A DNA stretch of 49,820 bases from a virus: positions 1 through 49,820 of IMG/VR virus record IMGVR_UViG_3300035670_000316; one strand, 5' to 3'. The notes below the pieces were generated by a model, which saw only the letters and a program-made list of their open reading frames with translations, was not told the DNA's origin and did no database searches. The position numbers and the translations under genes were made by a program. Each line of letters starts with the position of its first letter. Positions within the stretch are counted from its first letter, which is position 1. Positions 2,019-44,098 of the stretch are shown in pieces.

Positions 2019-3689
2019 TTAAAGGGTGTTCAAACCGTTTACGTAGATCTTACCGTAGAATTCCGGACGAAGCATCTTCTTAGCGTAGCGAGTCAAGAGA
2101 CCTTTTCTTGGAGTGAAGGTATCTGGATCGTAGATAAGAGGAGTCATGATCAACGGAATGTAAGGAGCGAACACAGCACCGGCCTCAAGGAACTGAGTAC
2201 CACGGAAGCCCATAAGGATAGTGTTTTCAGTCATGTAAGGGTTCTTGTAAACTGTGTAGCGGCTGTTCAATTGACCAGCTTTCTGTACACCAAATGCGTA
2301 CTCCATCTTGTCGGCAGAACCGTCGCTGTTAGAAGCGAATCCTGGGATTGACTCGATGATAGTAGCTACAGTTGGAGAACATACCATGAAGTTAGCACCT
2401 CCGCGGAGAGTTAACTGGTGGATCTTGTTGCTCAACTTTTGCATCTTGGTACCAAGAGTTTGGAACCACTGACCTTGAGTGTTGTAGAAAGCACTTGGAG
2501 AAGCTACTGGAGCTGTCTGGGTAGAGCTTGTGATAACGAAGTTGTTGATGGCTGACCAGTACTCAGTACCAGCGGCAGCGTCTTCGATTAACATGTCAAG
2601 GATTTCGAGGTCGATTTCAAGAGAGATGTACTCGCTCATGATGTTAGTAACCTCAGCTTCAGCGTCAAGAGCTTGGTAAGCGTTAAGGTCTTGTGCGAAC
2701 TCAGGAGTCCAAACAGCCTTTAACTTCTTAGTCTTGGCAACGATAGCCTCTGAACGCATACCGATGTTGATCTCTGGGATAACGATTTCAGTAGCGCTTT
2801 CAGCGTTAGGTACAGCGTATGAGTTTCCAGCTTCGAAGTCACCAACGTTGTATGGAGACATTGTAGTAGCCTTGTTGTACTCAACTACCATAGTGCTTGA
2901 ATCAGCGAAGCCAGTTTGGCCAGCAGAAGCAGTAACGTAGAAAGTTAAGTTAGGAGCATTGTAAGTAGTGAATGCAGGTAAGTTAGTAGCTACAGTTACT
3001 TTTGAACCTGTAGACAATACGAAGCCACGAACAGCTTGATCGTCTAAAGAAGCAGTAATAGTAGAAGCATCAACTACGATTTTCTTAACCTGACCAGCAG
3101 CAACAGAAGCTGATAACGCAGAATCAAAGTTTACTTCAGAGAAAGAAGCAGAAGTGATTGAAGCTGTAGTTACAGTGAACGAAGCTGAGAATTGGTTGGT
3201 TGAGTAGGTAAATCTACCGGCACCGTAAAGACCACCTTCAGCAGCTGGAGTGGCGAATGGATACTGTGAACCAGTGTTACCATAGAGTGATTGACCCTGG
3301 GTAAATGGATTCTTAGCAGTTCCGTATTGGAAATCTAAGTAGAATACAAGACCAGAAGGAAGGTTCATTGGTTGAACAGAAACGAATTCCTTAGCAGCGA
3401 TTTGTCCGAAGACCTTACGTACTAATGGAAGAGCGATACCTGCCCACTCAGCGCCTTGACCTACTGAGAAAGCACCGTAGCCAGAACCGCCACCTACTGA
3501 TGACTGCTCAACTACAAGTTGCTTAGCTTGGTTTTCGAGGATAAGAGACATGTTGTTCTTGTCGGTTTCTGAACGAAGACCTTCAAGAAGTCCAGTCACT
3601 TCCCACTTTGCAGCTAATTTAGCTGCGTCAGACTGCATGTTCTTCCATCCAGAAGCTGCAGACTCAAGAAGTTGTTGTACTTGTGACAT
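2019..3689 (-). CDS. gp23: Major capsid protein (T4 gp23-like)
   Basis: 556 residues, close to T4 gp23 (521). It directly follows the protease and scaffold genes in the T4 order 21-22-23. Residues 1-61 form a charged helical pro-region (QQLLESAASGW, NMSLILENQAKQL). VVE/QSSVGGG at 59-67 fits a prohead-protease cleavage site, near the position used in T4 gp23 (E65). GAFSVGQGAEWAGIALPLVRKVF then opens the mature protein, with the conserved C-terminal YIPLIMTPLIYDP and PRKGLLTRYAKKM. The GC content looks higher than in neighbouring genes, as often seen for abundant capsid proteins. A degenerate box (GATATATAAC) precedes the ATG, and a strong terminator follows the gene. Confidence 0.95.
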   Translation of the reverse strand: MSQVQQLLESAASGWKNMQSDAAKLAAKWEVTGLLEGLRSETDKNNMSLILENQAKQLVVEQSSVGGGSGYGAFSVGQGAEWAGIALPLVRKVFGQIAAKEFVSVQPMNLPSGLVFYLDFQYGTAKNPFTQGQSLYGNTGSQYPFATPAAEGGLYGAGRFTYSTNQFSASFTVTTASITSASFSEVNFDSALSASVAAGQVKKIVVDASTITASLDDQAVRGFVLSTGSKVTVATNLPAFTTYNAPNLTFYVTASAGQTGFADSSTMVVEYNKATTMSPYNVGDFEAGNSYAVPNAESATEIVIPEINIGMRSEAIVAKTKKLKAVWTPEFAQDLNAYQALDAEAEVTNIMSEYISLEIDLEILDMLIEDAAAGTEYWSAINNFVITSSTQTAPVASPSAFYNTQGQWFQTLGTKMQKLSNKIHQLTLRGGANFMVCSPTVATIIESIPGFASNSDGSADKMEYAFGVQKAGQLNSRYTVYKNPYMTENTILMGFRGTQFLEAGAVFAPYIPLIMTPLIYDPDTFTPRKGLLTRYAKKMLRPEFYGKIYVNGLNTL

Positions 3690-3713: not shown

Positions 3714-4940
3714 TTATTTTTTGATACCCGCTAAGACTTTCCATCTAGCGAATTGATCGTTTACCTCAAGGATTGGTTTCTTTTCTGGGGCAATTCCTGC
3801 TGCTTTAGAAGCCATACCTCTTACTGATTCGTTAACTGTAGTTTTAGTTTCCTTAACTGTAGTTAATGTTTCGTAAATAAGTTTAGCATCTTTTACAGAG
3901 GCAGCTTTATCAAAAGCTTCCAATACCTTTACTTTTTGTGTTTCAGTTAAATTCTTAGCTCTGAAGATTTTGTTAGAGTAAAGAAGTTTAGCGTTAAGGA
4001 GTTTAGTTTCAGCAAGAGTTGAAGCTAATTCTTCAAGTTCTTGTTTCATTTCTTCCATTTCACTTTCTCCTTCTTCCATACTAGCTTTTTTACCTTTAAT
4101 CAAACGCTTAACAGCTTCAATACCGTCTTTAGCGTAAGCTGCTGCTAATGCTGCTGCTGGAATACCTACGGCACCTGCTAGAATACCAGTGATTATTTCC
4201 ATATCACTAGGGTTCATCATTAGGTCGTAAAGTTCGTTTACTTCTTCTTCTTTTACAAGTTCACCTCTTTCTTTTTCGGTTGACTTACGAAGTTTGTCTT
4301 TTGGATTCTTACCGTAGTAAGCTCTTTCAGCTACCATTTCTTCTTCGTCTTCCATATCGATGTCGATGTCCTCTTCTTCTCCACCTTCTTCGTCGGCTTC
4401 GAATTCTTCACCGGCTTCGAGCTCACCAGCTCTAACCATGTCTTCGATTACATCCTCAATTAAGTCCTTGAGCTCTTCTTCGGTCATGTCTTCAAGGTCG
4501 ATTTCGTCTTCCTCTTCACCTTCAACTTCTTCTTCAGAGTCCATTTCCATTTCCTCTTCTTCTTGTTCGTTTAGGGTTTCTTCCATTTCCTTGTCTTTGC
4601 CCATTTCCTCATCGAGTTCAGCTAGGAGTTCATCAAGATCCATCTCGTCTACCATTTCATCTTCCTCTTCAAGATTACCTTTAGGAGCAGCGCTAAATGC
4701 GTTACCGGTACCTTCTTCACTAGGATCGTTAATAGTTCCAAGACGTTCTTCCATTTTCTCTTCGCTGTAGTTTTCTTCCACTTCTTCTTCAGCTTCCATC
4801 TCAGCTAACTTAGCAGAGAATTTCTCTTTTAAGTATGGAGTGAAGGCTTCCTCAAGAGCGGCTTTGGCGTTTGCGATAGCTGCTTCTTTAACAGATTTAG
4901 CATCAGCAATAGCCTCTTTCAATAGGTCTCTATTTGCCAT
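3714..4940 (-). CDS. gp22: Prohead core scaffolding protein (T4 gp22-like)
   Basis: 408 residues, very acidic between about 45 and 210 (runs of Glu and Asp), with a helical N-terminus MANRDLLKEAIADAKSVKEA typical of T4-like core scaffolds. It lies between the protease and capsid genes. Candidate self-processing sites are LKE/A at residue 9 and LNE/Q at 125, which fits a scaffold degraded by the prohead protease. A hydrophobic Ala/Gly-rich stretch (ITGILAGAVGIPAAALAAAYA) is at about 250-270, and the C-terminal third is helical. Longer than T4 gp22 (269 residues), mainly through the acidic insert. Its own leader holds two inverted repeats and a TATAAT box. Confidence 0.87.
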   Translation of the reverse strand: MANRDLLKEAIADAKSVKEAAIANAKAALEEAFTPYLKEKFSAKLAEMEAEEEVEENYSEEKMEERLGTINDPSEEGTGNAFSAAPKGNLEEEDEMVDEMDLDELLAELDEEMGKDKEMEETLNEQEEEEMEMDSEEEVEGEEEDEIDLEDMTEEELKDLIEDVIEDMVRAGELEAGEEFEADEEGGEEEDIDIDMEDEEEMVAERAYYGKNPKDKLRKSTEKERGELVKEEEVNELYDLMMNPSDMEIITGILAGAVGIPAAALAAAYAKDGIEAVKRLIKGKKASMEEGESEMEEMKQELEELASTLAETKLLNAKLLYSNKIFRAKNLTETQKVKVLEAFDKAASVKDAKLIYETLTTVKETKTTVNESVRGMASKAAGIAPEKKPILEVNDQFARWKVLAGIKK

Positions 4941-5123: not shown

Positions 5124-5732
5124 TTATATAATAGGGCAAGTACCCTTAGCACATAGAATTTCTGTTAAAATACTACTTGCTTTTCCGTAATGATTTACTG
5201 TATTGTATTCTTTCCCTTCGCGTACTAGATGCATAAATGAGCCTGGGTTAGAAGGGGTTGAAACGAAATCCCAACATAATAATTCGAAATCGTCTTGTAC
5301 TTCCATCATACCTTCTCCCATTGGTTTTAATGAGCCCATACCGCGAGAAGAAACACCCACTTGAACACCATTATCAATTAATGCTTTAAGGATATTGCCG
5401 GAAACTGTTGGTAAAATTTCGATTTTACCTACAACGTGATCACCATCCCACCATATATCGCGAATGATATGACAAACGTTTTTTAGATTGATTATAGAAG
5501 AATCTGGGTGGTCTAGTTCACCTGTTGCTCTATTTTGCTTGACTATATCTGTGTATTTATCTATTTCTCTTTTCCACAAGTCTTTAGCATAATATCTACC
5601 ATTACCATTTCTTACTTGAGCAGTAGCTAGGATTCCTTCTACAATAGGATTACCTGCTGGAGATTTGTAACCTTCAGTTAGCTGAACAGGGTTAACCTGA
5701 AATTCTTGAGTTTCAATTAGTACTTGTTTCAT
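5124..5732 (-). CDS. gp21: Prohead maturation protease (T4 gp21-like)
   Basis: 202-residue serine protease that cleaves scaffold, capsid and internal proteins in the prohead. The catalytic His is in GELDHPD (H75) and the nucleophile in GVSSRGMGS (S128 or S129). WDFVSTPSNPGSF near 154-166 is the conserved strand-turn of herpesvirus-type prohead proteases. QLTE/GYKSP at residues 17-25 is a likely autocleavage site in the (L/I)-x-E form. It overlaps the stop of the upstream internal-protein gene by one base and is followed by a strong terminator. Length matches T4 gp21 (212 residues). Confidence 0.93.
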   Translation of the reverse strand: MKQVLIETQEFQVNPVQLTEGYKSPAGNPIVEGILATAQVRNGNGRYYAKDLWKREIDKYTDIVKQNRATGELDHPDSSIINLKNVCHIIRDIWWDGDHVVGKIEILPTVSGNILKALIDNGVQVGVSSRGMGSLKPMGEGMMEVQDDFELLCWDFVSTPSNPGSFMHLVREGKEYNTVNHYGKASSILTEILCAKGTCPII

Positions 5733-6358
5733 TACTTTTTGATATCACCGTATCCGCTTGCTTTGTATTTTCCTTTAGCTTCTCCAGACTCACCTAAACC
5801 AGGAGCATCTTTAGAGTATCCAATACCTTTAACTCCAAATGCAGCATTTTCTACATAGAACGAAGGATTTTTAGCTAAATTTTTTCTAACGATTTCTTTT
5901 AACTCGTCTACAGTCTTATCAACGTTCTTAGGATCTTTCATTTCAGCGTAATATCCCTCTAAGAACTCTTCACCATATAGGTTATCAATATCCTTTTTAT
6001 TAGAATAATCAAATCCTGTTTCTCTTTGGTTATCTTCTACTTCTTTAGATAATTTAGTATTAACTGCTTTAGTATCGTAAGCACCTGAAGCTTTAGGGGC
6101 TTTAATAGGATTTTCTTGAACTGATGCTTCGTTTACAAATGAATTAAATGCTTGGAAAGGATCAAAAACACGCTTAGTAACTACACCACCAATGCCTTCG
6201 TTTAAAATACCTCTTTGTTTTAAGATAGTTGTAGCTTCACCGTAAGTAGCAAAGTTAGTGATGTACTCAGGAAATAATCTACGAGCTGATTTCAAGAACA
6301 TATCTTTATGTCCTTTTCCTTCCTGGATTAGATTGTATTGTTCTTGTAGTGTTTTCAT
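5732..6358 (-). CDS. Internal head protein candidate with protease-type sites
   Basis: 208 residues from the ATG at 6358. The frame is open further upstream to 6400, but that would run into the preceding gene, and MKTLQEQYNLIQEGKG is the typical internal-protein N-terminus. IQE/G at 11-14, LNE/G at 52-55 and VNE/A at 75-78 match prohead-protease sites. The remainder is charged (DNQRETGFDYSNKKDIDNLYGEEF) and ends with GESGEAKGKYKASGYGDIKK. It sits immediately upstream of the protease gene. No enzyme motif; likely packaged or a core component by analogy to T4 internal proteins. Confidence 0.7.
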   Translation of the reverse strand: MKTLQEQYNLIQEGKGHKDMFLKSARRLFPEYITNFATYGEATTILKQRGILNEGIGGVVTKRVFDPFQAFNSFVNEASVQENPIKAPKASGAYDTKAVNTKLSKEVEDNQRETGFDYSNKKDIDNLYGEEFLEGYYAEMKDPKNVDKTVDELKEIVRKNLAKNPSFYVENAAFGVKGIGYSKDAPGLGESGEAKGKYKASGYGDIKK

Positions 6359-6589: not shown

Positions 6590-6838
6590 TTATTTATTTA
6601 ATAATTCTTCGATGTCGTTTAAATATTCCATAATCAAATCTGTAGGTATTACTACAGCATATGAACCTGGGTTTTCTTTATAGTATGCTATTGTTTCGTC
6701 TTTTGCTCTATCAAGAGAAGTATATAAACTATTTAATCTAGCTTCGATGGCTTTAAATGCTTCGATGCGTTGATTTTGGAACTCTATTCTTTTAGGATCC
6801 GCCTCGTTTAATCTAGATTTTAATTTATACTTATACAT
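6590..6838 (-). CDS. Small helical protein with protease-type site
   Basis: 82 residues. It starts MYKYKLKSRLNEADPKR, where LNE/A (10-13) matches the site found in neighbouring head proteins. The rest is predicted helical and charged (NQRIEAFKAIEARLNSLYTSLDRAKDETIAYY). A TATTTATAA element ends 2 nt before the ATG. It occupies the region between portal and protease genes where T4 has small core proteins (67, 68), but no sequence similarity to them can be claimed. Confidence 0.6.
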   Translation of the reverse strand: MYKYKLKSRLNEADPKRIEFQNQRIEAFKAIEARLNSLYTSLDRAKDETIAYYKENPGSYAVVIPTDLIMEYLNDIEELLNK

Positions 6839-8278: not shown

Positions 8279-8293
8279 TCCTATTAGGATTTA

Positions 8294-8302: not shown

Positions 8303-8313
8303 TATTGAGATAT

Positions 8314-10203: not shown

Positions 10204-10217
10204 TGCTTAAATTATTG

Positions 10218-10226
10218 TTATAAATA
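10218..10226 (-). promoter_or_regulatory. Intergenic TTATAAATA element abutting a stop codon
   Basis: Coding strand TGA-TATTTATAAC: it directly follows the terminase stop codon and is 14 nt before the portal ATG. Confidence 0.55.
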
Positions 10227-11792
10227 TCAAAGAAGCCAACGGAGGTCTTCTTGTTGATTTCCTATTTTTTGTGTATATGGGTTTTGAACCATATTTCCTG
10301 AGTATACCCCTCCTTGTGTTTTTGTCATGTTACCTAAAGCAGCACGAGTCATATCTAAACCTTGTTGCTGAAATTTAAGTGAAGTATCTCTTAAAAATTG
10401 GCTTATACCAAATGACATTACCAAGTCATCGTTATATCCTCCTTGTGCTTCTGGGCGTCCGTTTTTCCAAACAAATACTTTCATTTCCTCTAGTAAACGT
10501 TTTGATTGAATTGTTACAGAACGATCTCCAACATATTCTCTAAATTTGTTTACTACTAAGGGTCTAGTTTTCAGTGACATTGTAAAACCAGGTGTTAAAT
10601 TGTTTCCATATTCATATCGGTTAAAATACGACTCAGCTGTTAATTGGTCACTTTTAGGTGACTGATAAAAGTTCTGGTAGCCACGTTCTATAACAGTTTC
10701 AATAGTAGCCCAACCTACAGAAGCATTTTCTACTACTAAAAGAGCATTATTATATTCAGAGGCTAAACCTACAAGAAAATGTCCAAATTCTTTTGGTGAT
10801 AATTGTCCTTTATATTCTGCTACTTGAGTATTGGTTTCAATATCCATTACGTGAGCCGCCGAAAAGTCTCTACCATCACCTCTAGCTACGTCAGCTACTA
10901 CCATGTAATCGCGAGTGTAAGAGGCGGGTTCCCAAACCCATAAGTTTTTATCTGCACCTCGTCTTTCTAGAGGTTCTTTAATAGTGGTTTGAGAGATAAA
11001 TTCAATCCATTCTGGGTAGAATACTGTTTCACCTGAAGTTGAGAAGTCACAGTCACATTCTTGTGCTGCCATTCTAGGATCACCTAGAAGTTCATCTTGT
11101 CGTTTTCTCCAAGCCTCGTCTCGTTCAGGGTGTACGTACCAAGGTAACTTGATAGGTAAAAAGTCGTTCTCCTGAGCTTCCGCTCTCACCCATGTCTGGT
11201 GGAACCAGTTTCCAGTTCCATAAGGGGTTGAGAGTACTATTGCTCCACCACCCGTTGCTAGTGTTTGTTGTGCTGATGCCCATATTTCACCAATGTTTTC
11301 AATGAACGCGGCCTCATCCACTATCAGCAAAGATACTGCTTCTGATCGACCTGCGTCACCAGCTGCTGATACTGCTTTAATTTGAGAACCGTTATTCAGT
11401 CGTAACGTTAATTTGTTATTTTCTTCGGCTGGTACTTTGAGCCATGAAGGTAAATTCTCGTACATGAATTTTACCTTGGTTACCATGTTTTTAGCTGTTT
11501 CTTGTTTGGTTGCTAAACAAAGTACGTTTTTGTCTTTGTGGAACATCATCCACCAAAGCGAATACCCTGCTGCTAGAGTAGAGATACCTAGCTGGCGGGA
11601 TTTAAGTACGATAGAGTATGGGTTGTCTTTCCATAGGTTAAGTACCTTACCTTGGAAAGGATATAAATTAAAGATAACACGACCACGTTGTGGGTGTTGA
11701 ATATAACAGTATTTTCTCATAAAGTGGGCTGGGTCTTGAGCACACTTTACAAATTCCTGTTGTATTATTTTTCTTAAATCTTGATCGCTCAT
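10227..11792 (-). CDS. gp17: Terminase large subunit (T4 gp17-like)
   Basis: 521-residue packaging motor. The ATPase domain has a Walker A variant LKSRQLGIST at about 63-72, Walker B LLIVDEAAF at 155-163, and the coupling segment AIVLSTPYGTGNW near 184-196. The nuclease domain has acidic residues in VVADVARGDGRD (D301), LLVVENASVG (E355) and YNDDLVMS (D455/D456). Length is somewhat shorter than T4 gp17 (610). It overlaps the spanin-like gene upstream by 4 bases. No small terminase gene is obvious next to it in the window. Confidence 0.96.
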   Translation of the reverse strand: MSDQDLRKIIQQEFVKCAQDPAHFMRKYCYIQHPQRGRVIFNLYPFQGKVLNLWKDNPYSIVLKSRQLGISTLAAGYSLWWMMFHKDKNVLCLATKQETAKNMVTKVKFMYENLPSWLKVPAEENNKLTLRLNNGSQIKAVSAAGDAGRSEAVSLLIVDEAAFIENIGEIWASAQQTLATGGGAIVLSTPYGTGNWFHQTWVRAEAQENDFLPIKLPWYVHPERDEAWRKRQDELLGDPRMAAQECDCDFSTSGETVFYPEWIEFISQTTIKEPLERRGADKNLWVWEPASYTRDYMVVADVARGDGRDFSAAHVMDIETNTQVAEYKGQLSPKEFGHFLVGLASEYNNALLVVENASVGWATIETVIERGYQNFYQSPKSDQLTAESYFNRYEYGNNLTPGFTMSLKTRPLVVNKFREYVGDRSVTIQSKRLLEEMKVFVWKNGRPEAQGGYNDDLVMSFGISQFLRDTSLKFQQQGLDMTRAALGNMTKTQGGVYSGNMVQNPYTQKIGNQQEDLRWLL

Positions 11793-12196: not shown

Positions 12197-12467
12197 TGTA
12201 TTTACGTTTAAATAGGTCAGCTTTGGCTTGTAAATCTGCTAGTTTAGCTTTGTCTTCTTGAATTTGAAGTTTGTAACTAGTAGCTACGCTATCTAATTTA
12301 GTGATTTTAGCGTGTGTAGAGTCAACTTGAGCTTGAAGCGAGTCATTAGCTCGCTCAAGCTCGTTGATTTTGTCATTTAAGTCAGTACTATGATCTAACC
12401 TTCTATAAACAGCAATTATAACAAGGATTAGAGCAACGTAACTTAAAATTCTAGTATATTTTTTCAT
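12123..12467 (-). CDS. Membrane-anchored coiled-coil protein, candidate inner spanin (Rz-like)
   Basis: 114 residues: a short basic N-terminus, one transmembrane segment (YVALILVIIAVY, about 10-21), then a long coiled coil (DLNDKINELERANDSLQAQV and following) and an HNRITGLTGDALVSEF tail. This N-in, C-out topology with a periplasmic coiled coil is that of Rz inner-membrane spanins. It ends inside the next, signal-peptide-bearing gene (74-base overlap). Similar proteins are frequent in phages of Bacteroidota. No holin or endolysin is recognised in this window, so the lysis assignment lacks support from the neighbourhood. Confidence 0.55.
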   Translation of the reverse strand: MKKYTRILSYVALILVIIAVYRRLDHSTDLNDKINELERANDSLQAQVDSTHAKITKLDSVATSYKLQIQEDKAKLADLQAKADLFKRKYNEEHNRITGLTGDALVSEFTNAFQ

Positions 12468-13264
12468 TAACTAAGTTTTGACACCTTGTCTTCGATCTCA
12501 ATTTTAGCCTTTGACCACTCTTCAGCGTACTTGTCTTTATCTAAAACACGGTTTGCATTATCTACAATACCCTTGTCTCTCATATCTTTTAAGAAGGCTT
12601 TAACAAGTTTACCTTTTTCTTGAGCACGGAGTTGAGCAGCTTTACCTTTTTCAACTTTACCACCTGATTTGGCTAATTTACGTAGCTCTAGATCTGAAGG
12701 TCCTTCTTCATCATCTGTAGTGTATGATTTATTTAAAGAAGAGGTAGAGAATTTAGGTTCTTTTTTCTTGGTTGGGGTTGCTGATTTAGGACGACCACGC
12801 ATTCCACCTTCTTTTTTCTCTTTAGCTGGTTTATCTGGATCTGCTTTGCGTCCGCGTTGACCAACTTCTCTTTCACCTCTTACAAGATCGATAAATTTGT
12901 TAAGTTGGTTATCAAATAAATCGTCGTCTGGTCCTAGAGCGGCTTGAACGTCATCGTCAGCTTTAATAGCTTTACGTACGTCTTTTTTTTCAGCATCTTT
13001 ATTTTTTTCGATTACTTTTTCGATTGCTACTTTTAGATCACCTGCGATCTTAGCCATTTCCATGAGAGCATCTTCTTCTTGAAGAGTTACACTACCCCCA
13101 GATTCAAGATCTTTTAAAGCAGCAGTTTTAGCTTGGGTATTTAAACTACCAAATTTTGGATCTTTTTGTAAATCAGCTTTAGCATCTTTTCCGGCATAAG
13201 TAGCCTCTTCAAGTTCACTAATGATCATCTCGCGAATAGCGGACTTCAATTCAGATATTTTCAT
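12467..13264 (-). CDS. Internal DNA-binding candidate with AT-hook motif
   Basis: 265 residues. N-terminus MKISELKSAIREMIISELEEATYAG shares the MKxSELK helix with other proteins here. LEE/A at 18-21 and IRE at 10-12 are protease-type sites. The middle is Lys/Asp-rich, with GQRGRKADP (about 135-143) and GMRGRPKSATP (154-164), the second containing the RGRP core of AT-hooks. The C-terminus is basic and helical. It sits just before the spanin-like pair and terminase. Likely a packaged DNA-associated protein; AT-hook binding is inferred from the short motif only. Confidence 0.65.
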   Translation of the reverse strand: MKISELKSAIREMIISELEEATYAGKDAKADLQKDPKFGSLNTQAKTAALKDLESGGSVTLQEEDALMEMAKIAGDLKVAIEKVIEKNKDAEKKDVRKAIKADDDVQAALGPDDDLFDNQLNKFIDLVRGEREVGQRGRKADPDKPAKEKKEGGMRGRPKSATPTKKKEPKFSTSSLNKSYTTDDEEGPSDLELRKLAKSGGKVEKGKAAQLRAQEKGKLVKAFLKDMRDKGIVDNANRVLDKDKYAEEWSKAKIEIEDKVSKLS

Positions 13265-16715: not shown

Positions 16716-16975
16716 TAGCTTTTATATATTTTAATTCTTAAGGGTCCTGTTCCTTTAATAGTTCGGTGCCACATATGTCGCGGTATAAATATAGGGCCTT
16801 TTAAGGGAAATGGCAACTGATTATCTAATTGAATTAACCAATCTGTTTCTCCTAGAATCTCGATTGTTCTATCTTCATCATCCCTATGCCACATTAACTC
16901 TATTGGGTCAATGTCTTCGGTAAATTCTCGGATGATGTATTTGTCTGTAACTTCTAGATCAGTGTATGGTTTCAT
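16715..16975 (-). CDS. Small cupin-like phage protein
   Basis: 86 residues. MWHRDDEDRTIEILG (28-42), WLIQLDNQLPFPL and IFIPRHMWHRTIKGTGPLRIKI form a double-stranded beta pattern with conserved WHRD and IPxxxWHR motifs. The two WHR motifs would place His residues together, as in a minimal cupin. I recall a family of 80-90-residue proteins with this WHRDxEDRxxEV...IPxxxxHR pattern in T4-like phages of aquatic bacteria, not characterised. It overlaps neighbours by 1 and 4 bases. Metal binding is a guess from the His spacing. Confidence 0.65.
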   Translation of the reverse strand: MKPYTDLEVTDKYIIREFTEDIDPIELMWHRDDEDRTIEILGETDWLIQLDNQLPFPLKGPIFIPRHMWHRTIKGTGPLRIKIYKS

Positions 16976-17241
16976 TCTCCTTTAGGCATAAACCAATTTG
17001 AACACCATTTTGAAGGGTCTTTGATTGGGTTACCATTATTGTCAACTAGTTCAGCTGGATCTTCTAAATCTGGGAATTGTTCTGAAATGTATTCTTGATA
17101 ATACTTGTTGGAACACATATGTTTTTCATCCTCCAAGTAATGGTATTTACAAACATGGCAACCAAAACCTACAGGAGAAAACATGTAGGGTGGGTAACTG
17201 CTTTCAGGAGACTCTTTTAAAAGATCTGTTAGCTTAATCAT
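16972..17241 (-). CDS. Four-cysteine protein with protease-type leader
   Basis: 89 residues. MIKLTDLLKESPESSYPP gives an LKE/S site at 8-11, the same leader form as the kinase at 27836-28639. The body has four Cys in CHVCKYHYLEDEKHMCSNKYY and KWCSNWFMPKG, a CxxC...C...C set that could bind zinc or an iron-sulfur cluster. YISEQFPDLEDPAELVDNNG lies between. Probably an internal head protein by leader and neighbourhood. What the Cys cluster binds cannot be told from sequence. Confidence 0.65.
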   Translation of the reverse strand: MIKLTDLLKESPESSYPPYMFSPVGFGCHVCKYHYLEDEKHMCSNKYYQEYISEQFPDLEDPAELVDNNGNPIKDPSKWCSNWFMPKGE

Positions 17242-17242: not shown

Positions 17243-17866
17243 TCACCAAAAACCGCTAAAGTTAGACTTTAAACCAAGTAGTTTAGCATAGCGAGGTAAA
17301 CGACAAGACCAATATGAAGCTTTTGTTTTGTCGTTCTTTTGAGCACAATTGTGACGCTTAGCAAATGCTTGACGTGCTTTAGGGTTATTGATTTTAGCTT
17401 TTAAACCACCTGAACCAAAACGTACTGTTTTAATTTTCTTGGTTTTTGGGTCGCGAACGTATACTTTGTAAGCTTTACCACCTGAAGAAGAGCGCATTGG
17501 TTTACCAATTTTCTTTTTAGCTTCTTCCATCAACAGATTAAATTCTGTCTCGTTTAATTCAATTGGAAAATCTAATGGAACACGAGTTCCATCCTCTAAA
17601 GTACCAAAATGACCCAAATCTGTTTCAGTTAGTACCTCTAAATCGTCTCCTTGTACCTCAATGATGTTGCGGCTGTATAAAGCGCGTGCTTCAGCCCATA
17701 AATTAAAGTAACTATCAGAACCAGCACGGTACACATGTTCTGTAAGAGGTCGTGCGTTATCTAAGTGATATTTCAAACCCTCAGATAGGATTTCTTTTGG
17801 TGCTACACTTTCGTTTAGCATTACTGGTTTTTTATCCTCGCAAATATTACAGCCGCAGTCACACAT
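17243..17866 (-). CDS. Internal protein candidate with basic C-terminal domain
   Basis: 207 residues. It starts MCDCGCNICEDKK, with four Cys in the first nine residues. Two protease-type sites follow: LNE/S (17-20) and LSE/G (27-30). Middle section: RPLTEHVYRAGSDSYFNLWAEARALY and an acidic LxxTDLGxF...VPLDFPIE block. The C-terminal 80 residues are a basic domain (GKAYKVYVRDPKTKKIKTVRF, NNPKARQAFAKRHNCA, YWSCRLPRYAKLLG) that I recall as a recurrent module in T4-like phage head proteins. Likely cleaved and packaged, with the basic part contacting DNA. Confidence 0.7.
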   Translation of the reverse strand: MCDCGCNICEDKKPVMLNESVAPKEILSEGLKYHLDNARPLTEHVYRAGSDSYFNLWAEARALYSRNIIEVQGDDLEVLTETDLGHFGTLEDGTRVPLDFPIELNETEFNLLMEEAKKKIGKPMRSSSGGKAYKVYVRDPKTKKIKTVRFGSGGLKAKINNPKARQAFAKRHNCAQKNDKTKASYWSCRLPRYAKLLGLKSNFSGFW

Positions 17867-21059: not shown

Positions 21060-21596
21060 TTAACCGTTTAATCTGTTCCATAATGGGAAAGCTACGCTTT
21101 CGTCTACTTTTGCTCTTGTTGGCTCGTCTCCTGCAACTACGAAGTCGCGAGTGAAGAATGTGATTGTATTACCAACCTGAGTGATGAATTTTTGGTCACC
21201 AAACTCTTCAGCTTGTGCTCTTAGAGTTTCGAGTGTGTCAAGGATTTTTCTTGTGTCTTGTGGGAGTGAAGATAGAGAAACAATTTTCTTGTCTACTACG
21301 ATTGAGTCATTTGCTGTTTCTTCTTCACCACCATCTGTAGTTTCTTCTTCAGCGTCAACGTCAACGTCTACTTCTTCCTCTTCTTCTTCGTCTTGTTCGT
21401 TTAACGATACTTCTTCTTCAGAAAGGCGAGCTAACATTTCGTCAAGATCTTCTTCGTACATGTCTTCTGCTTCGTCAACTTTAGGAGAGTACAGGGATGC
21501 TATAGCTGGAGCTGCATCATCGTCTTGATCCGTAGTAAAGTCTGCCTCTGATAAGTAAGCAGCCTTGATCATTTCTTTTAATTCTGATATTTTCAT
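21060..21596 (-). CDS. Acidic internal/core protein candidate
   Basis: 178 residues. Leader MKISELKEMIKAAYLSEADF gives LSE/A at 15-18. A highly acidic middle contains LNE/Q at 65-68 followed by a Glu run, the same LNEQ-acidic junction as in the scaffold (125-126). The C-terminal 70 residues look globular (IVSLSSLPQDTRKILDTLETL, GDQKFITQVGNTITFF, SVAFPLWNRL). Release of the acidic piece by the protease would mirror small acidic peptides known from T4 heads. A TATTTATAA element is 21 nt upstream. Confidence 0.7.
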   Translation of the reverse strand: MKISELKEMIKAAYLSEADFTTDQDDDAAPAIASLYSPKVDEAEDMYEEDLDEMLARLSEEEVSLNEQDEEEEEEVDVDVDAEEETTDGGEEETANDSIVVDKKIVSLSSLPQDTRKILDTLETLRAQAEEFGDQKFITQVGNTITFFTRDFVVAGDEPTRAKVDESVAFPLWNRLNG

Positions 21597-22238: not shown

Positions 22239-22520
22239 TTATTTTCTAAAGCGTACTTTTGCTTTAGGTGTATTAGATACAAACTGTTTACCTTTTTTAC
22301 TACCTGCTACTTTTTTTCTTGCAGTAGCTGCTCTTTGTGCTTTAGTTAAACGTTGAGCTTTTGCTTTTGGTAAGCAACGTGTTGTTGCTTTGCCTGGTTT
22401 CATAGTACCACAAGGACCGGTTATGTTACCCGCAGTATCGATACGCACCCAGTTCTCTTTTTTGAACCAGTCGCGTAGTGATTCTGTGATTATCTCTTGT
22501 AGGCGTTCTTGAGTTATCAT
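22239..22520 (-). CDS. Small basic protein (DUF6321-like)
   Basis: 93 residues. Leader MITQERLQEIITESLRDWFKK with ITE/S at 11-14. Then come NWVRIDTAGNITGPCGTMKP and a strongly basic region TRCLPKAKAQRLTKAQRAAT with ARKKVAGSKKGK. The combination (WVRIDTxGNIxGPCGT, RCLPKAKAQxLTKAQRAATARKK) matches a family I recall as DUF6321. The high Lys/Arg content suggests DNA binding in the head. It overlaps the next upstream gene by 4 bases. Confidence 0.75.
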   Translation of the reverse strand: MITQERLQEIITESLRDWFKKENWVRIDTAGNITGPCGTMKPGKATTRCLPKAKAQRLTKAQRAATARKKVAGSKKGKQFVSNTPKAKVRFRK

Positions 22521-23430: not shown

Positions 23431-23973
23431 TTACATCATTTTAGCTAATTCGGGGTTCTTTAAAGCGTAATAACGGAACAATGCTTTACCTAAAGTAGCT
23501 CTTACTTTATTTGAAACATAGTCTTGGAAAGGAACACCCTCTAAATCAGCATCAATCAAGTCATTGAGCTCATCCATCATTTGTCTTGATTTACCGGGTT
23601 GTCCCTCGTATTTGTCAGCAATAGCTTTAATGCTTGCTTTATGTTTGTCTAAAATTTCTCTTGCTTTAGCAGTTGCTGCTGAAAGTGCTTCTGGTGAGTC
23701 TGGGTAATCGTCTGCTACTTCATTTACAGATTCGTTCATACCTAATTCGGCATGAAGAATTCTCATAAAATCTTTTATTTGATCTGATGAAAACCCACTA
23801 TTAAGATCTTTTTCTGTACCTTTAAGAAATTTAGCTATAGCTTTAGCTAGATTAGGATATGATGGATCAACATCATATATAAGGTCATGTATTTTATCTA
23901 CTTCACTTTCTTGAAGAAGACCTGCTTCCGCTAGGTAGCGTCTTTTGTTCCATTTGTGTACGTTGAAGCTCAT
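23431..23973 (-). CDS. Internal protein candidate, helical
   Basis: 180 residues. Leader MSFNVHKWNKRRYLAEAGLL, with LAE/A at 14-17 and LQE/S at 20-23. The rest is helical and mixed charge (IHDLIYDVDPSYPNLAKAIA, REILDKHKASIKAIADKYEG, VRATLGKALFRYYALKN). It overlaps the following upstream small gene by 71 bases in a different frame, unusual for this compact genome. Function unknown. Confidence 0.65.
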   Translation of the reverse strand: MSFNVHKWNKRRYLAEAGLLQESEVDKIHDLIYDVDPSYPNLAKAIAKFLKGTEKDLNSGFSSDQIKDFMRILHAELGMNESVNEVADDYPDSPEALSAATAKAREILDKHKASIKAIADKYEGQPGKSRQMMDELNDLIDADLEGVPFQDYVSNKVRATLGKALFRYYALKNPELAKMM

Positions 23974-24132: not shown

Positions 24133-24714
24133 TTATTGTTTTTTTAGACTCTGTAGATATTTAATGGTTTCTTCCTTTGACTCAAGTAGTTTATTTTTTA
24201 CTGAACCTGTCCATTTTTCTACGTCACCTGCCTCTGTAATGTAAGACTGAATATCACTGTGTTCGATTTCTTCGTTAATCCAAAGTTCAAATTCTTTGAT
24301 CATACCCTCTACATCTGAGTTGTGAAGGAATGTTTGATATTCTTCCCATAGACCCTGAGTACGTAAACTAGTTTCAAAATCAATCTGGCAGTTAAAGCAG
24401 CGTTTGTACATGTTAAACCACCTCTTATCCAGGTGTGGTTTCATCGGTTTTTTACAAGACGGGCAAAAAATCGGAAAATTGACCGTTTCACGCGCCTTAT
24501 CAAGTTTGGTAACGTTTTGTTTAATACCATCCTTAATTGTCCACGTCTTGTCGCCTTCGGTCCATACATCACCTTCGTTGTGTACTTGATTGGCTTCTTT
24601 TGTAAAACCGACTGATACTTGGGATTTATCTGCATGTTTTCCCTTTACTAAATTTCTTAACCTATTAACGTCTTTTTCTGCGAATTGTTTCTTTAAAACA
24701 TTGTCTTTACTCAT
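24133..24714 (-). CDS. Conserved zinc-ribbon phage protein
   Basis: 193 residues. MSKDNVLKKQFAEKDVNRLRNL opens a conserved N-terminal part with WTEGDKTWTIKDGIKQNVTK. A zinc ribbon follows: CPSC (C84, C87) and CFNC (C106, C109), separated by a basic loop. The C-terminal half is helical (EEYQTFLHNSDVEGMIKEFE, SVKNKLLESKEETIKYL). I recall proteins of this pattern in T4-like cyanophages and related phages, still unnamed. It overlaps the polyprotein-like gene by 4 bases. Nucleic-acid binding is plausible. Confidence 0.75.
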   Translation of the reverse strand: MSKDNVLKKQFAEKDVNRLRNLVKGKHADKSQVSVGFTKEANQVHNEGDVWTEGDKTWTIKDGIKQNVTKLDKARETVNFPIFCPSCKKPMKPHLDKRWFNMYKRCFNCQIDFETSLRTQGLWEEYQTFLHNSDVEGMIKEFELWINEEIEHSDIQSYITEAGDVEKWTGSVKNKLLESKEETIKYLQSLKKQ

Positions 24715-27476
24715 AAACCTAGTTGTTGTAACTGTTTGATTGTATTAGCAGCCGATGTGTGAAGTATACCTATACCACCATTAGCATTCCATGAATCGAT
24801 AGTATCTTTTCTATCGTCAATTAAAATTTTATTTGGACCCGCAAAGTCGGCTTTTCTTTGAGCAGAGCGGAAATATATTTTTTTCATGTTAGGTAAACGT
24901 TGAACCCACTCGGTTTTACCTTGCATTGATTCATTGTTTTCTAACTTGTAACGTTCTTCAAATGGAATATCAAAATTAACAGAAGGAGCAGTTAAAACGT
25001 ATGGGTTATATTCTTTAATATAGTCCCAAAGTTGCTTTCCGTCGGGCATCCAATCTAGGTTAGCCCAATATGATCTTTCGGAGATGTCTTTGTTTTTTAG
25101 ACTATCTCTATATAATTTCCAAAATTCGTCTTTACCTTGTGAATCGGCATGTTGGGTGGTTACACCTGTTAGTTCTTTATATCCCTCATCGAAGTCCACT
25201 AACACACCATCCATGTCACAAAATATCACGGGTTTCTTTCCCCCTATCATTCCTCTCATTTCCTCATCCTTTTTTTCAACACCCGTATCATGAAGGTACA
25301 AGATCTCTTTTACGGAGGCACTGGTAAAGGAGGGTAAACCTAAAGCTTTTGCTCTTTTAGCCCATAGATCAAGAATTTCTTTTCTTTCTTCCTGATTAAT
25401 AGGTTGGGTATCTAAGTAATTGTCTATAACCTCTAAGAATGGTTTACGAGATTTTTTAGCTTTAAAATATAGACCTTGAAGCATTGCGTCTACTTCTTTT
25501 TCTAATTTAAAATATTCTGCTTTAGGAAGCAAATTAGCATCGATCATGTCTCGTAAAAACTCATCATCAGCCATTTGTTTGCTAGGTCTTACTAGTCTAG
25601 GATCATCGCTTTGAGTTCCACCTTTTACATTTTCACCATCTTGAGTTAAATGTTCAAGCTCATGTCTGATAACATCTTTTAAGTCAAATGATACTCTCTG
25701 CCAGTCTGGGTTTTTAGGAATTTCAAAGCGAACTGTTAGTAAAGGTTGAATAGGTTTACCTTTTTTATCCCACCCAGCATTTGCACCTCCATCTACTGTA
25801 TAAGTATCGTCTGTGTATTTAGCTTGAACTACAAAATCAAATTCAAACTCATCAGAGATAAAATCTACTTCCTCGTCTGCAGGCCCTACTACAAATAACT
25901 CGTCTATTACTTTTCTACCTACATCGTGCCCGTCTTTCATTAATCCAAACGCAAAACTAGAAAGTTCATTAGCTAATTTATCGTAGCGACCTTCTGTTAA
26001 TACTTCTTCTAAACCTTGAGCTAATTCACGAGCGTATTGGTTTAAACCAAAAGGATCTTTTACTTTACCGCTTGGATTATTTTGTTTTTTATAATCATCC
26101 ATATTTTTTACGGATGTTTTTTGACCATCTTCCTGTAAACCATCAGTCCAGTTACGGAAGGTCATTGTACCTTTTAGATTAGCTTCTTTTTCAAGATCAT
26201 TGATGTGATCGTCCTCTAAAGTATTTGTAGTGGAAACATCACCTAATCTACCTTCAAGGTTTTGAATGTGGTGAATCATTTCGTGAGAGAAAGAACGCAC
26301 AATATCTTTGGGATGACGACCGTAAGTATATAAGGTGATAGACTTATTGATCGGATCATAGTATGCGGTTTTACCCAAGAATTTACCGGCATTTTCCATA
26401 TCATCGTCTACGATTGATATGCTGGGAACAGGATCAATATTATATCCCTTTTCTCTCATATAATTGGTTAACTCGGCTATTTTTTCGAGTATATCAATTG
26501 AAGGGATAGTATTTTCTTTTAATGGCTTATATCCTGAACCAAATGGGGCTGCTTTACCTGTGTGGTTCGGAGCTACATTTTCTTTTTTTAAGCGCTGTGT
26601 TTTTTCCTTAGATGCTTCTTTTCTTTGTTCAGCATAATCCAAAGCAGTTTTTAAACGCTTTTTTACTTCTGGGTCTTTAGCTCTTTCGTAAGCTGCTCTT
26701 ACTCGCTGATGGATCAAATTAATAATTTGAGACTGGCGAGCGTGTGATTTTGATTTGAAAGAGGCTTTAGATAAAGTATCTATAATGTCTTGTTTAGTAG
26801 AGAATTTTACTTTAACAGTATCGCTCGGGTCTTCGTCTGTGTATAATCTGCGACCTGATCCTTTTGGTTTTTTACCTGTACCTACTTTAGGATCACCTTC
26901 TTTTAATACGTTAGGTTCTAAAATATTATAGATGTCTTCTTTTTCGTTATCTGGGATTTCGGTAGGTAAAAATGTAAAGAATTTCTCTTTATCTCCTTTT
27001 TGAAGTGCTTTACGAGCATTTGTTCCGCTCATATCACCAGATGGGGTTTTGATTACTCTAACCTCTAGATTAGGATATTTTTCTTCAACTCCCTTAGTGC
27101 GATTTTTAATGTCTTGTAGATCGTCTTCTCTACCCTCACGATAACCCAAAACAAAATATACTTTCTCATCTGGGTGGTTTTTAGCGTAACGTAAGATATC
27201 TCCGATTGGAGAAGGGGATGGTTCTATTTGAACTTTAGATGGGAGCAATTCCTTGTAAATATCCCATACTTGAAGTGATTGTTCTTGTTCGATTCCATCT
27301 CTAATACCTCCACCAACATAGATTAAAAATTTATCTATGTCTTTGAAATCTTTTAAAGCGGTTTTAACTAAGTCAAAGTGACCTTTGGTAGGTGGTTTAA
27401 AACCACCCCCATAGATCGCAGTAACGGATTGTCCGTCTACTAGTTCTCTAACCAAAAACTTTGTTAGTTGGTCCAT
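24711..27476 (-). CDS. Multidomain candidate polyprotein: nucleotidyltransferase, two zincin-like motifs, HAD nucleotidase
   Basis: 921 residues with four enzyme-like regions. (1) About 18-190: adenylyl/cytidylyltransferase fold, with GGGFKPPTKGHFDL at 23-36 (HxGH-type site) and SGTNARK at 150-156. (2) About 330-480: zincin-type HEMIHH at 398-403. (3) About 497-700: second HExxH, HELEH at 605-609. (4) About 748-921: HAD phosphatase, with CDMDGVLVDFD at 753-763 (D754, D756), LTAPS at 828-832 and LIDDRKD at 885-891, like deoxyribonucleotidases. Junctions carry prohead-protease-type sites: LKE/G (E193), LKE/N (E321), LTE/G (E495). The fusion looks like a precursor cleaved in the head, but no cleavage is shown. 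It sits among candidate internal-protein genes. Confidence 0.8.
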   Translation of the reverse strand: MDQLTKFLVRELVDGQSVTAIYGGGFKPPTKGHFDLVKTALKDFKDIDKFLIYVGGGIRDGIEQEQSLQVWDIYKELLPSKVQIEPSPSPIGDILRYAKNHPDEKVYFVLGYREGREDDLQDIKNRTKGVEEKYPNLEVRVIKTPSGDMSGTNARKALQKGDKEKFFTFLPTEIPDNEKEDIYNILEPNVLKEGDPKVGTGKKPKGSGRRLYTDEDPSDTVKVKFSTKQDIIDTLSKASFKSKSHARQSQIINLIHQRVRAAYERAKDPEVKKRLKTALDYAEQRKEASKEKTQRLKKENVAPNHTGKAAPFGSGYKPLKENTIPSIDILEKIAELTNYMREKGYNIDPVPSISIVDDDMENAGKFLGKTAYYDPINKSITLYTYGRHPKDIVRSFSHEMIHHIQNLEGRLGDVSTTNTLEDDHINDLEKEANLKGTMTFRNWTDGLQEDGQKTSVKNMDDYKKQNNPSGKVKDPFGLNQYARELAQGLEEVLTEGRYDKLANELSSFAFGLMKDGHDVGRKVIDELFVVGPADEEVDFISDEFEFDFVVQAKYTDDTYTVDGGANAGWDKKGKPIQPLLTVRFEIPKNPDWQRVSFDLKDVIRHELEHLTQDGENVKGGTQSDDPRLVRPSKQMADDEFLRDMIDANLLPKAEYFKLEKEVDAMLQGLYFKAKKSRKPFLEVIDNYLDTQPINQEERKEILDLWAKRAKALGLPSFTSASVKEILYLHDTGVEKKDEEMRGMIGGKKPVIFCDMDGVLVDFDEGYKELTGVTTQHADSQGKDEFWKLYRDSLKNKDISERSYWANLDWMPDGKQLWDYIKEYNPYVLTAPSVNFDIPFEERYKLENNESMQGKTEWVQRLPNMKKIYFRSAQRKADFAGPNKILIDDRKDTIDSWNANGGIGILHTSAANTIKQLQQLGL

Positions 27477-27839
27477 TTACTTAAGCTTCATGATAAGCTC
27501 TTTGGCCTTGCTTTTCTTTTCTTCGATTTCTGTTTTAGCCTTTCTGTACTCTTCCATCTCACGCTTAAGAGCTTCTTTCTGCATTTCGTACTCTTTCATA
27601 GCAGTTTTAGCGTGTTTGCGAGCAGCTGATTTATTTGTGCTGGCGTAAGCAGCATTAATCTCGTTCATGTCAATTGTATCGTAGATAGAAGCAGGACGGA
27701 TCATATCGTCCATTGACATACCTCTTTTAGGTTTCATTACAAGGATGATTTCGCCAATCTCGTTATATGGCTCTTTCATTTCCAATGTTTCAGCTTCTAA
27801 AGCTTCCTTGATTAAGTTTTTTAATTCAGATTTTTTCAT
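27477..27839 (-). CDS. Small coiled-coil protein with internal-protein leader
   Basis: 120 residues. Leader MKKSELKNLIKEALEAETLE gives IKE/A at 10-13, nearly identical to the leader at 43703-44098. The middle, IGEIILVMKPKRGMSMDDMI, is followed by a long charged helix to the end (ARKHAKTAMKEYEMQKEALK, EYRKAKTEIEEKKSKAKEL). It starts inside the kinase gene end (4-base overlap) and ends directly before the polyprotein ATG. Function unknown. Confidence 0.7.
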   Translation of the reverse strand: MKKSELKNLIKEALEAETLEMKEPYNEIGEIILVMKPKRGMSMDDMIRPASIYDTIDMNEINAAYASTNKSAARKHAKTAMKEYEMQKEALKREMEEYRKAKTEIEEKKSKAKELIMKLK

Positions 27840-28639
27840 GAGTTAAGGAATTGTTTGATTTTGGATTGTGCTTCTGGGATAGAAACAGTTTGTTGTATAA
27901 TATCTTGAACGTTTTTCTCGTCGCGTAGTGATATAATCTCTTTTTCAAGTGCTGCTTTATCAGCTCTGGATTTAGCGATTTCTTTTTCTGATTTTTCTTT
28001 AGTATCAGTTGGTTTATAAGGATCAATATAGCGTTTAACTATATCTTCTAAACTTGCTTTGCTGAATGGATCCTTGTCTTTTGTAGTTGCTACAAAGTTT
28101 TGACCAAATAAATTAAGGTAAGGGATAAAGTTTTTAGTTACGTTAGCCCACGTTTGCATTACAATTGAAGGCATTAAACTTCTATCCTCACCAGCTGAAC
28201 GCTCAAATCTGTCTTCGTTTTTCTCAAGTGATTTTTCAAGTGAAGAATAAACGTAAACCATCATTACATCATATCCGGCTGCCTCTAAAGTATCTTTTAA
28301 CGATTCTGTTTTCTTGTAAGCAGCAGCAGTACCATCAATTACGATGTCTCCTTTAGAACCAATTTCTTGTGCTAAAGCTACTTGATAATCCTTTTGAGCT
28401 GCAGCCATTGCTTTAGCTGCCCCACTTCTACCTTCAGCATCTGCTTTTTTCAAATCAAGTGAAATACCAGCATCGCGAAGATTTTTAATAAAAAAATCGT
28501 CAATGTTCATTACTTTCAAACCAAGGTCACTGATAATTTCACCTACAACAGATGATTTACCAGCGCCAGGAGCGCCTGCTAAGATAATAGCTTTGGGGGC
28601 ACCTTGTGCCTCTTTAAGTAATTGGACCAATGAGATCAT
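27836..28639 (-). CDS. Zeta-toxin-like P-loop kinase with internal-protein leader
   Basis: 267 residues. MISLVQLLKEAQGAP carries LKE/A at 8-11, then IILAGAPGAGKSSVVGEI has Walker A at 22-30. VMNIDDFF near 43-50, IVIDGTAAAYKKTESLKDTL near 97-116 and MVYVYSSLEKSLEKNEDR follow the layout of zeta-toxin and polynucleotide-kinase-like P-loop enzymes. The last 60 residues are a charged helix. Cleavage after E10 would release an enzyme beginning just before its P-loop strand. The substrate is unknown: UDP-sugar, nucleic-acid end or small molecule. If packaged it could act at infection start. Confidence 0.75.
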   Translation of the reverse strand: MISLVQLLKEAQGAPKAIILAGAPGAGKSSVVGEIISDLGLKVMNIDDFFIKNLRDAGISLDLKKADAEGRSGAAKAMAAAQKDYQVALAQEIGSKGDIVIDGTAAAYKKTESLKDTLEAAGYDVMMVYVYSSLEKSLEKNEDRFERSAGEDRSLMPSIVMQTWANVTKNFIPYLNLFGQNFVATTKDKDPFSKASLEDIVKRYIDPYKPTDTKEKSEKEIAKSRADKAALEKEIISLRDEKNVQDIIQQTVSIPEAQSKIKQFLNS

Positions 28640-28654: not shown

Positions 28655-28662
28655 TATAAATA
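28655..28662 (-). promoter_or_regulatory. Intergenic TATAAATA element (variant) abutting a stop codon
   Basis: Coding strand TGA-TATTTATACG: directly after the stop codon of the RecB-like nuclease gene, 15 nt before the kinase ATG. The ninth base differs from the other copies. The spacer contains ACGCGCGT. Confidence 0.5.
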
Positions 28663-43287: not shown

Positions 43288-43703
43288 TATTGGTTAAAAT
43301 TTAAACTAACTGTATCAGTTTCTCCGGATAACACAACTGTATATGTTATATTTACTTGAATTGTATTCAAATCTTCACTTCCTAATACTTCAACTTCTAA
43401 TACTCTAGCTTCTGGGAAATTATTGGTTAAATCCGTTTCTATTTGAGACTTTAAAGCATCTATATTATTAGAGTTTATTTGCTCAAATATAGTTGCTCTT
43501 AAATTCCCCCCATAGTTAGGATAAAATACTCTTTCTCCTTTATTAGTTAAGAAAAAATTAATTATATTAGAATTTAATTGGGATTTAGTAGTATAAGTAG
43601 AATTAAAAACTGCATCACCCTCGCCTGAGAAAGGTAAAGCAACTCCAACAGCCCTAGCAGGTTGAGTATCTATTGGAAATTTTCTACCTATAAAAATTGC
43701 CAT
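43287..43703 (-). CDS. gp25: Baseplate wedge protein (T4 gp25-like)
   Basis: 138 residues (T4 gp25 is 132). NSNIINFFLTNKGERVFYPN with YGGNLRATIFEQINSNNID is the conserved core of the gp25/gpW lysozyme-like fold that links sheath and baseplate. The C-terminal beta strands are VLEVEVLG and NTIQVNITYTVV. It is followed at once by gp6 and preceded by a short protein with an internal-protein-like leader. Confidence 0.93.
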   Translation of the reverse strand: MAIFIGRKFPIDTQPARAVGVALPFSGEGDAVFNSTYTTKSQLNSNIINFFLTNKGERVFYPNYGGNLRATIFEQINSNNIDALKSQIETDLTNNFPEARVLEVEVLGSEDLNTIQVNITYTVVLSGETDTVSLNFNQ

Positions 43704-44098
43704 TATTTACCTCCCTTCATTAAGCCCATAATCATATCTAGACCTACATTACCTTCTGGTAATTTAGAGCCTTCACCTGAAGTGTTCATACCAGGAGCTA
43801 CTTGCAAAGTATTAGCAGTTACACCCATTCCTCTAGCATCCATTGAGTTAAATGAAAGAGTATCTTGACCTCTTCTCATATCACCCATAATACTTTCCAT
43901 CATAGCTCTTTTTTCAGCTGTGGATTTTTGTGGGATTTGAGTGGTAGGAGCGTCAACAGTTACAGGATGCATTTTATAAGCTTCCTGAATTGGTGCTTTA
44001 GGAGCACGAACAGCTTCCAAAAGGATATCTTTTAATTCCTCTTGGATAGCTTCTCTAACTGCTTCTTTGATAAATGATTTTAATTCACTTGGTTTCAT
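43703..44098 (-). CDS. Small protein with MKxSELK leader inside the baseplate block
   Basis: 131 residues. Leader MKPSELKSFIKEAVREAIQE: IKE/A at 10-13, LLE/A at 26-29 and IQE/A at 37-40 are protease-type sites spaced about every 10-16 residues. The rest is polar and Met-rich (EKRAMMESIMGDMRRGQDTL, GNVGLDMIMGLMKGGK). The leader is nearly the same as at 27477-27839, yet this gene lies between the hub-like and gp25-like genes. It may be a packaged head protein encoded out of place, or the leader may serve another assembly role. Confidence 0.66.
   Translation of the reverse strand: MKPSELKSFIKEAVREAIQEELKDILLEAVRAPKAPIQEAYKMHPVTVDAPTTQIPQKSTAEKRAMMESIMGDMRRGQDTLSFNSMDARGMGVTANTLQVAPGMNTSGEGSKLPEGNVGLDMIMGLMKGGK

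What the first reader, a model, noticed from the sequence alone, without database searches (positions are those of the whole stretch)
27836..28639. P-loop kinase that would be released by head-protease cleavage
The zeta-toxin-like kinase begins MISLVQLLKEAQGAP, and cleavage at LKE/A would leave an enzyme starting a few residues before its Walker A strand. Combining a targeting leader with a toxin-like kinase suggests an injected enzyme active at the start of infection.
Basis: partly seen in the sequence, partly recalled or inferred. Interest (0 to 1): 0.7.

Follow-up and report, generated by a model that had tools for sequence, protein, structure and literature searches.

The report
Head-targeted P-loop kinase in T4-like phage
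A T4-like phage, probably of flavobacteria, carries a small kinase with the same kind of N-terminal shipping tag and protease cut site that T4 uses to pack proteins into its head, so the enzyme is probably delivered into the host with the DNA; what it phosphorylates is unknown.

Summary
Window 27836-28639, minus strand (the finding gave no strand), encodes a 267-aa kinase starting MISLVQLLKE|AQGAPKAIILAGAPGAGKS. The leader has the register of the T4 internal-protein capsid-targeting sequence (MKTYQEFIAE|A): residues 4/7 target and 8/10 direct cutting in T4. In relatives down to 38% identity, residues 4, 7, 8 and 10 are held while 5, 6, 9 and 11-14 drift. Kinases at 21-29% identity in pelagiphage, methylophage and Straboviridae also carry LxE leaders of other lengths. 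In the window 14 of 59 genes have [LI]xE[AGS] near the N-terminus (2.8 expected). The same filter on T4 finds 7 known gp21 substrates among 11 hits. A gp21-type protease is encoded in the window. The model shows the leader as a loose helix outside a confident kinase fold. The partner adenylyltransferase and nucleotidase genes also carry leaders in most relatives; a cyanophage homologue with an in-register leader was found in purified virions (PMC3037559). Packaging and cleavage are therefore likely but unproven. 'Toxin-like' is weaker: three of four zeta UDP-GlcNAc contacts are missing, and polynucleotide kinases score at least as well structurally.

The parts
28610..28639 (-). N-terminal leader MISLVQLLKE, in the register of the T4 internal-protein capsid-targeting sequence; predicted head-protease cut after E10
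   Evidence: T4 register from PMC9026906
27836..28609 (-). predicted mature P-loop kinase (residues 11-267) and stop codon
   Evidence: Pfam Zeta_toxin 1.5e-14; model pLDDT 91; PDB matches
28553..28576 (-). Walker A, GAPGAGKS (residues 22-29)
   Evidence: G22, G25, G27, K28 invariant
28655..28662 (-). TATTTATA element before the kinase start, shared with the portal gene and ten others
27477..27839 (-). 120-aa protein with leader MKKSELKNLIKE|A, overlapping the kinase end by 4 nt
24711..27476 (-). 921-aa protein: PPAT/NMNAT-fold adenylyltransferase, two HExxH regions, C-terminal 5'-nucleotidase (NT5C); LxE at 193, 321, 495 between domains
5124..5732 (-). gp21-type prohead protease (Peptidase_S77), the proposed cutting enzyme
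   Evidence: Pfam 1.2e-27, phrog_207 5.8e-57
2019..3689 (-). major capsid protein (gp23-like)
   Evidence: phrog_138 6e-65; VVE|Q aligns with the T4 LTE|A cut
3714..4940 (-). probable scaffold/core protein, LKE|A at residue 9 and many LxE sites
   Evidence: identity inferred from position
5732..6358 (-). leader-bearing protein MKTLQEQYNLIQE|G
6590..6838 (-). leader-bearing protein MYKYKLKSRLNE|A
12467..13264 (-). leader-bearing protein MKISELKSAIREMIISELEE|A
16972..17241 (-). leader-bearing protein MIKLTDLLKE|S, same register as the kinase
17243..17866 (-). protein with an LxE site near the N-terminus (LNE|S at residue 19)
21060..21596 (-). leader-bearing protein MKISELKEMIKAAYLSE|A
22239..22520 (-). 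leader-bearing protein MITQERLQEIITE|S
23431..23973 (-). leader-bearing protein MSFNVHKWNKRRYLAE|A, second site LQE|S
43703..44098 (-). leader-bearing protein MKPSELKSFIKE|A

Best explanation
The kinase is an internal head protein of a T4-like phage. Residues 1-10 are a capsid-targeting sequence that puts the precursor into the prohead core; the S77 (gp21-type) protease cuts after E10; the mature kinase (from A11) stays in the head with the DNA and enters the cell at infection. There it phosphorylates a hydroxyl of a small molecule or nucleic-acid end, together with a co-conserved adenylyltransferase and 5'-nucleotidase that usually have leaders of their own. Shown by sequence: leader, its conservation in register, presence of the protease, kinase fold, gene partnership. 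Inferred: targeting, cleavage, ejection, substrate. Confidence given is for targeting plus cleavage; ejection of active enzyme about 0.55; any particular substrate below 0.3.
For: Leader in the T4 IPIII register, where residues 4 and 7 target and 8 and 10 direct processing (PMC9026906); L4, L7, L8 and E10 are the conserved leader residues, while 5, 6, 9 and 11-14 drift. Leader and linker vary in length in L071, L079, L083, L084, as expected of a separate module. LxE leaders on kinases at 21-29% identity: MIPFILKE|G, MKTFAELQE|G, MNFKEFCQLDE|A. 14/59 window genes against 2.8 expected; on T4 the same filter finds ipI, ipII, ipIII, 68, 22, 23, 24 among 11 hits of 57 genes. Protease present. Leader modelled as an isolated helix, pLDDT about 51. 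Free-standing NT5C carries its own leader (MPNLLDLYE|A in L091-L094, MYKLTDLYKQIKE|E in L064, LLLEE|S in immuto), which is absent where NT5C is fused. S-SM1 cytidylyltransferase, MKKFSAFLNE|A, was found in purified virions (PMC3037559). Kinase and portal share the TATTTATA element.
Against: No virion proteomics for this phage or for any kinase relative. P1' varies (A, V, G, Q, I, L), although the capsid protein's own aligned site is VVE|Q. The window adenylyltransferase has D where the leader usually has E (LVD|G); HTVC008M, GAP32 and L080 adenylyltransferases lack an LxE leader. A short amphipathic helix with LxE is cheap sequence: the T4 filter also returns gp17, e.7 and 24.3.
Confidence: 0.74

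Rival explanations
1. The leader targets the kinase to the prohead core, but the enzyme acts in assembly or is cleared, and is not ejected as active enzyme.
For: T4 core proteins gp22, gp67 and gp68 are degraded; leaders here are shared with small proteins of unknown role.
Against: Catalytic residues are strictly kept and the core has only one further LxE[AGS] site, at residue 256 near the C-terminus, so it should survive the protease.
Confidence: 0.12
2. Ordinary intracellular enzyme of nucleotide or RNA-end metabolism; the N-terminal helix has nothing to do with the head.
For: The neighbours upstream are a Toprim primase and a PDDEXK nuclease; polynucleotide kinase is the best structural match; some relatives sit beside uvsX and gp41.
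Against: The leader drifts apart from the core yet keeps E10, and similar leaders sit on unrelated proteins, known head proteins included.
Confidence: 0.14
3. A true zeta-type toxin phosphorylating UDP-GlcNAc to weaken the wall at entry, as proposed for zeta kinases fused to MuF (PMC5512222).
For: Zeta_toxin is the best Pfam family; zeta and PezT are the top PDB hits by sequence and by Foldseek.
Against: Of the zeta UDP-GlcNAc contacts E100, T118, R120, T128 (PMC3062530) only T118 is kept (T104); the others align with Q86, A106, L114. No antitoxin gene was recognised beside it.
Confidence: 0.12
4. Within the best explanation: the kinase is a polynucleotide- or tRNA-type kinase, part of an end-repair set with the nucleotidase and adenylyltransferase.
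For: Clostridium thermocellum Pnkp kinase Z 15.1 at 2.8 A, PSTK 13.7, T4 Pnk about 12; N-x-x-R...R-x-[LV]-x-P motif.
Against: AvrRxo1 (13.1) and zeta (13.2) are close behind, and a shared fold does not fix the substrate; no ligase gene in the window.
Confidence: 0.28

Closest known systems
T4 internal proteins IPI-IPIII with capsid-targeting sequence, and Alt
   Same: 10-residue leader in the same register, LxE|A, gp21-family protease, T4-type head module
   Different: the cargo is a P-loop kinase; T4 IPs are small non-enzymatic proteins (IPI inhibits a nuclease) and Alt is an ADP-ribosyltransferase
Zeta/PezT toxins (PF06414)
   Same: fold, Walker A, conserved T104 (zeta T118), LID arginines
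   Different: no recognised antitoxin, UDP-GlcNAc contacts mostly missing, head leader present
Polynucleotide kinase domain of bacterial and T4 Pnkp
   Same: highest structural score; D in the Pnkp1 'NRDD' position
   Different: low sequence identity (13-18%); no activity tested
Polyvalent proteins (Iyer et al. 2017, PMC5512222), which include zeta kinases fused to MuF
   Same: virion-carried enzymes thought to act at entry; the 921-aa neighbour is multidomain with peptidase-like regions
   Different: here a stand-alone kinase with a T4-type leader and no MuF
Cyanophage cytidylyltransferase T4-GC190 (S-SM1)
   Same: in-register leader MKKFSAFLNE|A; homologue of the neighbouring enzyme; found in virions
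   Different: not the kinase; its cleavage was not described in the text read

Membership tests
T4-type CTS-bearing internal head protein | short N-terminal leader ending [LI]xE, hydrophobic at residues 4, 7, 8 | tested here: met
T4-type CTS-bearing internal head protein | phage encodes a gp21-type (S77) prohead protease | tested here: met
T4-type CTS-bearing internal head protein | protein present in virions with leader removed | not testable with these tools
   only the homologue of the neighbouring enzyme is reported in virions (PMC3037559)
T4-type CTS-bearing internal head protein | leader sufficient to package a foreign protein | not testable with these tools
   bench experiment
Zeta toxin (PF06414) | Pfam profile above the curated cut-off | tested here: met
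   54.3 bits against 22.3
Zeta toxin (PF06414) | UDP-GlcNAc contacts E100, T118, R120, T128 conserved | tested here: not met
   only T118 (T104) kept
Zeta toxin (PF06414) | cognate antitoxin gene adjacent | tested here: inconclusive
   no antitoxin recognised; the overlapping 120-aa protein has no informative match
Polynucleotide kinase | kinase fold with Walker A, Asp general base and LID arginines | tested here: met
Polynucleotide kinase | activity on 5'-OH nucleic-acid ends | not testable with these tools
   needs an assay
Polyvalent protein | several effector domains in one polypeptide | tested here: not met
   the kinase is single-domain here; the 921-aa neighbour and Atu_ph07 gp053 are multidomain

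The most novel reading that the evidence does not exclude
Kinase, adenylyltransferase and 5'-nucleotidase form one virion-delivered enzyme set that repairs or replenishes a nucleotide, cofactor or RNA-end pool attacked by host defence from the first moment of infection; each part keeps its own head-targeting leader when encoded as a separate gene and loses it when fused.
Probability: 0.3. Interest if true: 0.78.

Novelty: new variant of a known kind. Interest (0 to 1): 0.57.

Why it matters
T4 internal proteins are known for only a few cargoes. If the leader rule holds, the contents of heads of T4-like phages of marine and flavobacterial hosts can be read from sequence, and a kinase, an adenylyltransferase and a nucleotidase become injected enzymes that can be tested, with a natural experiment in the leaders that appear on free-standing NT5C and are absent on the fused form.

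Tried and rejected
Near-identical DNA in the phage collection: none. Papers on a zeta kinase in T4-like virions: none found in the open library. Enrichment of LxE sites inside the 921-aa neighbour: number not above chance (3 against 3.9), only the placement at domain borders is suggestive. Cellular relatives as leader-free controls: only two Glutamicibacter kinases, one of which by chance contains an LHE near its start and both of which have uncertain start codons, so uninformative. Assigning a substrate from fold: polynucleotide kinase, PSTK, zeta and AvrRxo1 are too close. The kinase is not at this place in the nearest cultured relative, Flavobacterium phage immuto, where a different protein (gp089, with a Pol-beta-like motif) occupies the slot.

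Full report
What is there. The ORF at 27836-28639 lies on the minus strand and encodes 267 aa starting MISLVQLLKEAQGAPKAIILAGAPGAGKSS. Pfam names it Zeta_toxin (E 1.5e-14). The window is a fragment of a T4-like phage: major capsid, gp21-type protease, portal and large terminase lie at 2019-11792. The nearest cultured relative of the neighbouring 921-aa protein is Flavobacterium phage immuto, and close kinase relatives occur in contigs binned with Winogradskyella and Flavobacteriales, so the host is probably flavobacterial (inference).

Is the leader real? Across 59 window genes, 14 have [LI]xE[AGS] with E at residues 7-25. Random internal stretches of the same proteins give 2.8 (largest of 2000 draws 9), shuffled N-termini give 2.8, and four control motifs stay at chance (binomial 6e-7). 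The 14 include the expected head-protease substrates (major capsid, scaffold) and the protease itself. On 57 genes of T4 the same filter returns 11, among them ipI, ipII, ipIII, 68, 22, 23 and 24, all known gp21 substrates; the other four are gp2, gp17, e.7 and 24.3. A hit is thus informative, not decisive.

Conservation. In 27 representatives under 80% identity, residues 8 and 10 are 96% conserved and residue 4 is 81%, while residues 5, 6, 9 and 11-14 drift; the linker is more variable than the enzyme (mean entropy 2.4 against 1.4 bits). In 48 distinct DNA sequences L4, L8 and E10 never change although both Leu positions use all six codons. In T4 IPIII, residues 4 and 7 matter for targeting and 8 and 10 for processing (PMC9026906), the same register. 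Leader and linker change in length in L071, L079, L083 and L084. Kinases at 21-29% identity carry LxE leaders of other lengths: HTVC008M MIPFILKE|G, Melnitz MKTFAELQE|G, Aeromonas CC2 MKMKFSEFVQLEE|K, Cronobacter S13 MNFKEFCQLDE|A.

Anatomy. AlphaFold (28 sequences, mean pLDDT 91) puts residues 4-11 in a helix of pLDDT about 51 outside the domain, with strand beta-1 at 16-21. The capsid protein's site, aligned with the T4 LTE|A cut, is VVE|Q, so E at P1 and an aliphatic P3 fit this protease while P1' seems free.

Neighbourhood. Kinase, adenylyltransferase and 5'-nucleotidase stay together across relatives. In the window the last two are one 921-aa protein; in L091-L094, L064 and immuto the nucleotidase is separate and then has its own leader (MPNLLDLYE|A, MYKLTDLYKQIKE|E, LLLEE|S). 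The adenylyltransferase domain is modelled at pLDDT 91 and matches PPAT (Z 18.2, 2.3 A, 152 residues); its leader is a lower-confidence helix, and in the window it ends LVD|G, not LxE. In T4 an aspartate at position 10 still targets but blocks processing (PMC9026906). A viral protein annotated with a cytidyltransferase-like domain also matches the kinase model (BFVD A0A6J5LF86), which suggests a fusion of the two. The cyanophage homologue of the adenylyltransferase, T4-GC190, was detected in purified S-SM1 virions (PMC3037559); its S-SM1 gene begins MKKFSAFLNE|A, in perfect register. This is the strongest outside support that such leaders mark virion proteins.

Expression. TATTTATA on the coding strand lies mostly 12-17 or 3-4 nt before the kinase start in relatives (25 of 42 exact, 35 within one mismatch). 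In the window it is strand-biased (18 against 1), and 12 of 18 copies lie within 35 nt of a start codon, including the portal gene. This fits co-expression with virion genes. Because nearly all window genes are virion genes, it does not separate late from general expression.

What the kinase does. The enzyme core is intact: Walker A, D47, R144 and R153 are invariant. By sequence zeta and PezT come first; by VIA-align, bacterial polynucleotide kinase (15.1), PSTK (13.7), zeta (13.2) and AvrRxo1 (13.1). Of four zeta residues that contact UDP-GlcNAc (PMC3062530) only T118 is kept, so a cell-wall toxin is not favoured. A substrate among nucleic-acid ends, tRNA or cofactors is equally possible.

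Verdict. New variant of a known kind: a T4-type targeted internal protein with an unusual enzymatic cargo and leader-bearing enzyme partners.

Noticed in passing
window, e.g. 28655-28662, 10219-10226, 8295-8302: TATTTATA on the coding strand, the exact reverse complement of the T4 late promoter TATAAATA, stands 4-32 nt before 12 start codons and is strand-biased 18:1; possibly this phage's late promoter element.
   Followed up: partly
24711-27476: The 921-aa protein combines an adenylyltransferase, two HExxH regions (398, 605) and NT5C with LxE sites at the domain borders, and varies in module content between relatives, like a polyprotein.
   Followed up: partly
12467-13264, 21060-21596, 27477-27839, 43703-44098: A second leader type, MK[KIP]SELKxxI[KR]..., is shared by several otherwise unrelated proteins here and in immuto.
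   Followed up: no
L022:6245-7477 and L100:11296-12270: HTVC008M DUF6267 and S-SM1 GC71 proteins, near the kinase or adenylyltransferase, hold VKWDGAPA, resembling the KxDG motif of nucleic-acid ligases.
   Followed up: no
L024:4221-6557: Agrobacterium phage Atu_ph07 gp053 starts MKWNDLNE|A and carries the kinase domain internally after VTE|G, as if released from a larger precursor.
   Followed up: no
L103:12263-13171: In Flavobacterium phage immuto the kinase slot holds a 302-aa protein with a Pol-beta-like GS...DID motif.
   Followed up: no
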